Positions 8,901 to 11,099 of a stretch of DNA of 64,000 nt are shown piece by piece (positions within the stretch are counted from its first letter, which is position 1; the number at the start of each line of letters is the position of its first letter). The notes under the pieces were generated by a model. It was not told the DNA's origin. It saw nothing but the letters and a program-made list of their open reading frames with translations, and made no database searches. The position numbers were made by a program, and so were the translations under genes. This stretch comes from Emydura subglobosa (Eukaryota; Chordata; Testudines; Chelidae), in assembly GCA_007922225.1 (NCBI GenBank), contig ML679972.1, positions 37,973,579-38,037,578 of the forward strand. Reading direction: 5' to 3'.

Positions 8901-11099
8901 GCTGAGTGACCTAGGTCAAGTCCCTTCCCTGCTCTGTGCCTCAGTTCCCCCAGCTGTACAATGGTAGCCCCCTTGCACTCAGGTCCCCTTCCCCACCCTG
9001 TGCTCCCCTTCAGCTGACGCAGCCTTTGGGGGTCTTTCCCACAGGACATCTCTCCAGAGGAGCTGAAGAGCGAGCTGCCGGAGCGCCAACCCCGATATCC
9101 TTCTGCTGTGGGGTGGGGAGGCCAGGGCACTGGCATCGCACATGGGGGCAGGATGCCAGGAATATGCATGGGGGGATGTGGGCAGGAGGGGGGTTTTCTG
9201 GGGGGTTTTGTCCCCGGGAGAGGAGGGGGTGCTGGGGCTATGGACAGGGGAAAGGGTCCCTTGTCCCCAGTTTGGCATGGGGCAGAGGAGGAGAGTGGTG
9301 TCTGTGTGGGCCTGGCGGGGGAGAGGGGGCCGCAGGGGATCAGAGCAGCAGGGGGCAGTGCAGAGAGGGAGAGAAATTGGGAGGGGCAGGAAAAAAAGCC
9401 CCTCTCATGGGGGGCATGGACCCCACAACCCCCCGTGTTGTGGCTCTGCAGTGCAGTGGGAGGCCGGGCAGGGACCCCAGAGCTCACGGCCTTGAGCCAA
9501 CCCACGCTGGATCTGCAGGGCTGGGGTCCTGGGAGATCCCAACGTGCCCGGCAGCCGTCAGAGCTGCTGTGGCTGGGGACTGCCCTGCGTGGGCCTGGGG
9601 GGCGGGAGCAGCCAGGAGGGGAGAAGAGATGGAGAAGGACAGAGAGATGGATATTTCAGGGGAGGCCGGGGCGAGGTGGGTCTCACTGTATCCAATCCAG
9701 AGTGTCCGTTGGCCTGGGGGATCGCTGCACAGGCAGGGGCATGTCACATGGTCTGTCTGTCCATCCTGCCATCCGTCCCCATACACCCCATCTATCTATC
9801 TATCTACCTGAACATGTAAGTGCCTTTTGATGGCCCTTGAGCTCTGGGCTGGCCCGGTGGGAGCCATTTGTGTCCCATGAGATTTTCAATGTCACAGGCT
9901 GGACAACACCGTCCCGTCCCCCTCCATCCCTCTCCCCACTGGCCCAGTTCAGCAGAGATGCAGCTGCTTCCTTGACTGGGGCTACCTTTGTGGTGTACAG
10001 TTATAAATATGTCCACGATGACGGGCGCATCTCCTACCCTCTCTGCTTCATCTTCTCCAGCCCAGTCGGTGAGAACCAGGGGGAGCAGGGTCTAGTGGTT
10101 AAAGCATGGGGGTGGACTGGGAGCCAGGACTCCTGGGTTCTATACGCAGCTCTGGGAGGCGATGGTGGGGTCTAGTGGTTATAGTGGGGGGGCTGGCGCC
10201 AGAACTCCTGGGTTCTATCCCTAGCTTTGGGATGTGATGGGGGCATAGTGGTTATAGTGGGGGGCTGGTGCCAGGACTCCTGGGTTCTATTTCTGTCTCT
10301 CCCCCTGGGCCAGGGTGTAAGCCGGAGCAACAGATGATGTATGCTGGGAGCAAGAACAGGCTGGTGCAGGCAGCTGAGCTCACCAAGGTATCAGGGCAGT
10401 GTCGCCTCCCTCGAGTTCCCCCCATGGGCAGTGCTGACACCCCATGGACCCCTGCTCCCCATATACCCATCCGAGGAGGGGATCATCTCTGCCCCTACCC
10501 CTCTGCCCAAGGTTGGAAAGGGCTGTTGCTGTCCCCTCCCGTGCACCCTGCTCTGCCCTGTCCCAGGGCTGGGGGGTTGCCCTAGAGCATGGGTGGGGAA
10601 CGTCCAGCCCGCTGGCCATATAAGGCCCGCGAAATCATTTGGTCCGGCCCTGGCAAGGCAACCGCAGGGGGGAATTCGGCGGCGGTGCGGTTTCACGGCG
10701 GCGGCGGTGGCGGCGGGGGGAAATTCGGCGGGGGACACTCAGCTGTCTTCCGCATACCACCATCAGGCCCTTGGCAGAAAAAAGGTTCCCCACCCCTGCC
10801 CTAGAGCATGGGGTCTTATTGCTTCCTACCCCCAGGGGCATCCCACTCATCTAGCTAGGACCTGACCCCATAGCTGGGATCTCCCAGACCCCACAGGTGG
10901 GATAAAGCTGGAACCATCGGGCACCCCCCAACGCTGGGATTACTGGGCCCCTCATTCAGCAAGATTGGACCGGCAGGGCCTCTCACTGCCCACCCCAACT
11001 CCTGCCAACGCTCCCCTCTTCCCCCAGGTGTTCGAGATTCGGACCACGGAGGACCTGACCGAGGAGTGGCTGCGGGAACGGCTGGCCTTCTTCCGCTAG
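5071..11099 (+). CDS. GMFG: Glia maturation factor gamma, seven coding exons
   Basis: This is an ADF-homology (cofilin-fold) protein. GMF proteins bind the Arp2/3 complex, block nucleation and take apart branched actin filaments; GMFG is the form enriched in blood and immune cells. Exons join 5071-5073, 6542-6638, 7055-7104, 9045-9094, 9986-10068, 10314-10387 and 11028-11099. They total 429 nt, exactly 142 residues plus stop, the family's usual length. Visible blocks are FRFRKETNNAAI (about residues 21-32), ELPERQPRFVVYSYKY (60-75), SSPVGCKPEQQMMYAGSKN (91-109) and TEDLTEEWL. The gamma form is favoured over beta by KYVHDDGR (beta has Q for V) and the FFR ending (beta ends FFH). All introns except the fourth are GT-AG; the fourth is AT-AC. 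No frame break is seen, so the gene looks functional. Confidence 0.97.
5695..6095. repeat. GT-rich cryptic simple repeat in GMFG intron 1
   Basis: About 400 bp of imperfect 'gtgtgtgacaatggg' units grade into pure GT runs (about 5960) and a GA run (about 5978-5992). The alternating purine-pyrimidine stretches could form Z-DNA. The minus-strand frames across it (Thr/His/Ser-rich) are artefacts. Confidence 0.85.
6542..6638 (+). CDS. GMFG: GMFG coding exon 2
   Basis: The acceptor is 'tccctctgcag' (AG at 6540-6541) and the donor is GTGAGTGT at 6639. It encodes SDSLVVCDV... through NNAAIL and ends with the first base of the next Met codon (phase 1). Confidence 0.96.
6756..6975 (+). repeat. Three-copy tandem repeat of about 81 bp with CTCF-like cores (GMFG intron 2)
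   Basis: Units start near 6761, 6841 and 6922. Each carries a word like 'cccagcagggggtgctgtgg' followed by 'ggagcggggcaggggcgc'. A fourth, weaker copy is near 6338. The word fits the CTCF core (CCASYAGRKGGCRS). Confidence 0.75.
7055..7104 (+). CDS. GMFG: GMFG coding exon 3
   Basis: The acceptor is 'gtctccccag' and the donor GTGGGA. It encodes MKIDKERQLVVLEEEFQ, completing the split Met codon. The 50-nt length keeps the frame. Confidence 0.96.
7380..7595. repeat. CA-rich minisatellite with CTCF-like words (GMFG intron 3)
   Basis: Four degenerate units pair a 'ctccagcagggggcagc'-type word (about 7408, 7468, 7510 and 7547) with a run of 'cacacaca'. The same composite unit recurs at 11.85-11.97 kb, just beyond GMFG. 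Confidence 0.7.
8120..8285 (-). repeat. MIR/CORE-like SINE copy
   Basis: It carries the reverse words 'aggggaaactgaggcacag' and 'ctaaccattagaccac', the core and the tRNA A-box end of the SINE. It lies in GMFG intron 3. Confidence 0.65.
8400..8775 (-). mobile_element. CR1 LINE 3' fragment
   Basis: It carries typical archelosaur CR1 3'-end words in reverse: 'agaaggaaccattgtgatca', 'gatggagaatccaccacgg', 'ctctgctagactgaagagcc'. It is 5'-truncated, as usual for CR1, and lies in GMFG intron 3. Confidence 0.85.
8780..8972. repeat. tRNA-headed SINE (minus) followed by a MIR-like core (plus)
   Basis: Between 8815 and 8880 the reverse of 'ctagtggttagagcagagg' and 'caggactcctgggttctat' is present, that is, the tRNA-like A and B boxes. 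From 8890 a plus-oriented 'ctctgtgcctcagttccccc' core follows. It ends about 70 bp before GMFG exon 4. Confidence 0.65.
9045..9094 (+). CDS. GMFG: GMFG coding exon 4
   Basis: The acceptor is 'ctttcccacag'. It encodes DISPEELKSELPERQP plus two bases (CG) of an Arg codon. The following intron begins ATATCCTT, not GT; no GT nearby keeps the protein in frame with family identity. Confidence 0.95.
9086..9102 (+). promoter_or_regulatory. GMFG: U12-type 5' splice site
   Basis: The intron starts ATATCCTT at 9095-9102. This is an exact match to the AT-AC U12 donor consensus that pairs with U11 and U6atac snRNAs. Confidence 0.93.
9968..9985 (+). promoter_or_regulatory. GMFG: U12-type branch site and AC acceptor
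   Basis: TTCCTTGAC at 9968-9976 matches the U12 branch-site consensus TTCCTTRAC. The branch A at 9975 lies 10 nt from the intron end AC (9984-9985), inside the narrow distance that U12 introns require. There is no strong polypyrimidine tract, as expected. Confidence 0.93.
9986..10068 (+). CDS. GMFG: GMFG coding exon 5
   Basis: It follows the AC acceptor and completes the Arg codon (CG+C). It encodes FVVYSYKYVHDDGRISYPL and CFIFSSPV, ending with one base of a Gly codon. The donor is GTGAGA. Confidence 0.96.
10083..10300 (+). repeat. Tandem tRNA-headed SINE fragments filling GMFG intron 5
   Basis: Three successive copies of 'tctagtggttaaagc' and 'aggactcctgggttctat' (about 10090, 10170 and 10250) make up nearly all of the 245-bp intron. 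These are tRNA A-box and B-box-like words. Confidence 0.75.
10314..10387 (+). CDS. GMFG: GMFG coding exon 6
   Basis: The acceptor is 'ctgggccag'. It completes Gly and encodes CKPEQQMMYAGSKNRLVQ then AAELTK. The donor is GTATCA. Confidence 0.96.
10580..10806. mobile_element. hAT-type MITE with perfect 8-bp target duplication (GMFG intron 6)
   Basis: The element spans 10588-10798 (211 bp). It begins CATGGGTGGGGAACGT and ends with the inverse of CAGGGGTGGGGAACCT. It is flanked by identical CCCTAGAG at 10580-10587 and 10799-10806, the 8-bp duplication typical of hAT. The interior is CGG-rich ('ggcggcggtggcggcgg') and has no coding capacity, so it must have been moved by a transposase made elsewhere. 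The intact duplication suggests a fairly young insertion. Confidence 0.88.
11028..11099 (+). CDS. GMFG: GMFG coding exon 7 with stop
   Basis: The acceptor is 'cttcccccag'. It encodes VFEIRTTEDLTEEWLRERL then AFFR and TAG. The 3' UTR is very short, about 75 nt to the polyA signal. Confidence 0.97.
   Translation: MFEIRTTEDLTEEWLRERLAFFR

What the first reader, a model, noticed from the sequence alone, without database searches (positions are those of the whole stretch)
9095..9985. GMFG intron 4 is a textbook U12-type AT-AC intron
The donor ATATCCTT, the branch site TTCCTTGAC and the terminal AC, with 10 nt from branch A to intron end, all match the minor-spliceosome consensus. No GT-AG alternative preserves the conserved RQP-RFVVY junction. 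AT-AC introns are a tiny minority of animal introns. The gene's expression in this lineage therefore depends on U11/U12 and U4atac/U6atac snRNPs.
Basis: partly seen in the sequence, partly recalled or inferred. Interest (0 to 1): 0.75.

Follow-up and report, generated by a model that had tools for sequence, protein, structure and literature searches.

The report
Conserved minor-class intron in GMFG
Intron 4 of this animal's actin-regulator gene GMFG carries the signals of the rare "minor" splicing machinery, a real but ordinary inherited feature that the sister gene GMFB has at the same place.

Summary
GMFG intron 4 (9095-9985, 891 nt, phase 2) starts ATATCCTT, carries TTCCTTGAC (9968-9976) with 10 nt after the branch A, and ends AC. 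Splicing it out gives a 142-aa protein that aligns without gaps to solved GMFG structures. Of 25,872 donor/acceptor combinations tried, three keep the exact protein; only AT-AC among them is a recognised pair. The window's own genome is held. Its GMFB paralogue has an AT-AC intron at the same codon and phase (atatcctttt ... ttccttaacctcagaaaaac), while the intron bodies do not align. The genome carries U11, U12, U4atac and U6atac matches above Rfam cut-offs. Human GMFB intron 4 is a published minor intron with the same donor (PMC7244321). No RNA evidence was available. No paper that I opened or saw listed in nine searches stated the intron class of GMFG itself; supplementary intron lists could not be read and one search listed only 20 of 438 papers.

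The parts
5071..5073 (+). GMFG coding exon 1 (ATG only)
   Evidence: start of the 142-aa frame, donor GTGAGG
6542..6638 (+). GMFG coding exon 2
7055..7104 (+). GMFG coding exon 3
9045..9094 (+). GMFG coding exon 4, ends CCCCG (the Arg codon of RQPR split after two bases)
9095..9985 (+). U12-type AT-AC intron 4, 891 nt, phase 2
   Evidence: same position and class in GMFB of the same genome
9095..9102 (+). U12-type 5' splice site ATATCCTT
9968..9976 (+). U12-type branch site TTCCTTGAC, branch A inferred at 9975
   Evidence: six Watson-Crick pairs plus one wobble possible with this genome's U12 match
9984..9985 (+). 3' splice site AC
9986..10068 (+). GMFG coding exon 5 (FVVYSYKYVHDDG...)
10314..10387 (+). 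GMFG coding exon 6
11028..11099 (+). GMFG coding exon 7 with stop codon

Best explanation
This is an ancestral U12-type (minor spliceosome) AT-AC intron in GMFG. U11/U12 di-snRNP recognises ATATCCTT and TTCCTTGAC together, U6atac replaces U11 at the donor, and U4atac/U6atac.U5 complete catalysis (pathway recalled), joining CG|C to restore Arg-Phe in RQPRFVVY. Shown: sequence, boundaries, frame, the shared intron in GMFB, and snRNA-family matches in the genome. Inferred: actual use of the sites, the machinery that removes the intron, and descent from an intron older than the GMFB/GMFG duplication.
For: Exact motifs and spacing. Among 154 x 168 = 25,872 donor/acceptor combinations, three keep the exact protein (ends AT-AC, TA-CC, AT-CT) and only AT-AC is a recognised pair. 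Gapless alignment to GMFG structures 4jd2 and 1vkk over all 142 residues. GMFB of the same genome: AT-AC intron of 846 nt at the same codon and phase, atatcctttt ... TTCCTTAAC, 12 nt from A to end, with no significant similarity of intron bodies (best blastn E 3.9). The other five GMFG introns of this model are GT-AG. snRNA families above gathering score in the genome: U6atac 5 matches (best 131.4 bits), U12 1 (152.8), U4atac 1 (104), U11 1 (115.4). Human GMFB intron 4 is used in print as a minor intron with donor TCGatatcc and 3' end ttctttaacttgagaaaaacCTT (passages of PMC7244321).
Against: No RNA reads. Relaxed motif pairs are not rare in the window (4 against 1.21 expected). The longest contiguous pairing of the donor with U6atac found by script is in another register (CCTTCT with AGAAGG, 6 bp) than TCCTT/AAGGA (5 bp); the branch site pairs less strongly with U12 than GMFB's does (-8.6 against -11.1 kcal/mol); the pairings had no shuffled control. 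Some AT-AC introns use the major spliceosome (stated in PMC6717393, passage).
Confidence: 0.97

Rival explanations
1. An AT-AC intron removed by the major (U2) spliceosome.
For: AT-AC ends alone do not define the class; such cases are stated in PMC6717393 (passage).
Against: The whole donor and branch site match the U12 form and are shared with GMFB, a published minor intron in human. The 3' end has no strong pyrimidine tract (11 of 18, but introns 1 and 3 have only 12 of 18, so this is weak).
Confidence: 0.02
2. A GT-AG intron nearby is used, changing the junction.
For: 136 GT-AG pairs keep the frame free of stops; the one at 9112/10001 adds only one residue.
Against: All 136 change the protein's length. 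RQPRFVVY aligns unchanged in the three GMFG structures whose alignments were shown, and GMFB of the same genome reads RQPRFIVY across its own AT-AC junction.
Confidence: 0.01
3. An assembly error or pseudogene gives a false AT-AC intron.
For: Single assembly, no reads.
Against: Intact 142-aa frame and an AT-AC intron at the same place in GMFB on another contig.
Confidence: 0.005

Closest known systems
Human GMFB intron 4 (minor intron, PMC7244321)
   Same: AT-AC, donor atatcc, same split of the codon (TCG|CTT), branch-like ttctttaac with 12 nt after the second A (passage)
   Different: Paralogue in another species; branch site and spacing differ slightly (TTCCTTGAC, 10 nt here)
GMFB intron 4 of the window's own genome (L008)
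   Same: AT-AC, donor ATATCCTT, same position and phase
   Different: 846 nt, branch TTCCTTAAC, 12 nt to the end; intron body does not align

Membership tests
U12-type AT-AC introns | 5' splice site ATATCCTT | tested here: met
   9095-9102 (8-nt consensus recalled; the published GMFB donor atatcc agrees)
U12-type AT-AC introns | Branch site close to TTCCTTRAC a short way before the 3' end | tested here: met
   9968-9976, 10 nt after the A (A is the 11th base from the end). PMC6717393 gives an optimum of 11-13 nt, so this is at the short edge or just outside, by counting convention
U12-type AT-AC introns | Terminal AC at a protein-preserving boundary | tested here: met
U12-type AT-AC introns | Host genome has the minor-spliceosome snRNAs | tested here: met
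   Rfam matches above cut-off; expression not tested
U12-type AT-AC introns | Score above U2 matrices in a published weight-matrix classification | not tested
   no published matrix was held; only consensus matching
U12-type AT-AC introns | Removal requires U12/U6atac in cells | not testable with these tools
   no RNA data
GMFG orthologues | Closer to GMFG than to GMFB, with GMFB present separately | tested here: met
   over the same stretch 2-139: 268.1 bits to GMFG 1wfs, 252.8 to GMFB 1v6f; a second, GMFB-like gene lies on C26. Gene neighbours were not established

The most novel reading that the evidence does not exclude
Both GMF genes found in this genome keep a minor intron at the same codon, so the supply of both GMF proteins (Arp2/3 debranching factors, recalled) could be tied to minor-spliceosome activity, for example the level of U6atac, as a shared regulatory switch on actin branching that selection has kept.
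Probability: 0.12. Interest if true: 0.4.

Novelty: new member of a known kind. Interest (0 to 1): 0.13.

Why it matters
It is a clean example of minor splice signals that persist in two paralogues while the intron bodies no longer align. Both GMF genes found in this genome carry U12-type signals. For annotation it is a useful caution: a gene finder that allows only GT-AG would misplace this junction.

Tried and rejected
Rfam on the window: 0 matches at gathering score. Paper searches for GMFG with U12-type, minor intron, U12, ZRSR2 and AT-AC gave 0 papers each. GMFG with minor spliceosome gave one paper whose passages show GMFG only in a pathway table. A broad search needing 2 of 5 terms held 438 papers, of which 20 were listed. 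'Glia maturation factor' and GMFB searches led back to PMC7244321 and to one further paper not opened. Pfam scan of 10 of the 45 longest stop-to-stop frames printed: 0 of 10 matched a family, so gene neighbours were not established. The long open frame of intron 4 on retention (244 codons; 6 of 2000 resamplings reach it) was considered as a coding extension and set aside: intron 4 is G-rich, two forward frames are open for over 230 codons, and 38 of 2000 resamplings reach the longest run in some frame.

Full report
Observation. I rebuilt the gene from the window: seven coding exons, 429 nt with stop, 142 aa (the edges of exons 6 and 7 were corrected between the two). Introns 1, 2, 3, 5 and 6 are GT-AG; only intron 4 is AT-AC. 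A non-coding 5' exon was not looked for, so 'intron 4' counts from the ATG exon; the number agrees with human GMFB in print. The protein matches Pfam Cofilin_ADF. Its best solved relatives are GMFG entries, 4jd2 and 1vkk, over residues 1-142 without a gap.

Is AT-AC needed? I tried every last exon base from 9046 to 9199 with every first exon base from 9900 to 10067 (25,872 combinations). Three keep the exact protein, with ends AT-AC, TA-CC and AT-CT. Only the first is a known splice pair. GT-AG pairs that keep the frame free of stops number 136, 15 of which were printed; sorted by change in length the smallest change is one residue, so all alter the protein. The mildest replaces the conserved FVVYS by YPSAVG.

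Chance. The strict U12 pair occurs once in the window, on the plus strand, against 0.005 on average in 200 first-order Markov resamplings. The relaxed version is not convincing by itself (4 against 1.21), nor is the donor 8-mer alone (1 against 0.79). No published weight matrix was run; the consensus is recalled.

Comparative evidence. The assembly (G000, 1.93 billion bases in 1268 contigs, unnamed) holds a second GMF gene on contig C26. Its exon 4-exon 5 protein is GISPDELKDELPERQPRFIVYSYKYQHDDG..., which I call GMFB by its likeness. Its intron 4 (846 nt) begins atatcctttt, has TTCCTTAAC and ends AC, at the same phase 2 position. The two intron bodies do not align (best blastn E 3.9). PMC7244321 (passages seen) used human GMFB exon 4-intron 4-exon 5 in minigenes as a minor intron, and prints the same donor and a matching 3' end. 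The simplest account is one minor intron older than the GMFB/GMFG duplication. The date of that duplication (early vertebrates) is recalled, not tested. GMFG orthologues of other species were not available, so the intron class of human GMFG was not tested.

Machinery. Rfam searches of the genome found, over cut-off, U6atac (5 matches, the lower ones probably pseudogenes), U12 (1), U4atac (1) and U11 (1). Only the best candidates are scored, so these are lower bounds. In each of the four searches 0 of 14 control genomes matched; the outputs do not name those genomes, so the control says little here. The genome's own U12 match can pair with the branch site over TTCCTTG (six Watson-Crick pairs and one G-U; -8.6 kcal/mol against -11.1 for the GMFB branch site). 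U6atac can pair with donor TCCTT through AAGGA, though a 6-bp register (CCTTCT with AGAAGG) was also found. U11 nt 4-8 can pair with donor TCCTT (four Watson-Crick pairs and one wobble). These pairings had no shuffled control.

Background. Minor introns were, until very recently, about 0.5% or less of introns in every genome studied, and about 26% of human minor introns are AT-AC (passages of PMC10639083). PMC6717393 counts 770 human and 722 mouse minor introns with about 22% and 24% AT-AC (passages). So the feature is uncommon but belongs to a long-catalogued class.

Verdict. Real, correctly read, ordinary. What remains open is RNA confirmation, the ortholog comparison, and whether the shared minor intron regulates GMF supply.

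Noticed in passing
9095-9827 (+): Intron 4 is a multiple of three long and open for 244 codons in the retention frame (6 of 2000 resamplings reach this; 38 of 2000 reach the longest run in any frame); a retained transcript would first meet a stop at codon 312.
   Followed up: partly
12684-12851: Inverted repeat with 78-nt arms, 90% complementary, 12 nt apart; it looks like two back-to-back copies of a sauropsid retroposon end (recalled, not searched).
   Followed up: partly
5697-5829: Imperfect GT-rich tandem repeats inside GMFG intron 1; further GT runs to about 6090 seen by eye.
   Followed up: partly
L009-L013 (own genome): Five U6atac matches with falling scores (131 to 40 bits), suggesting one gene and several retropseudogenes (inference); the second, L010, still scores 102 bits.
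   Followed up: no
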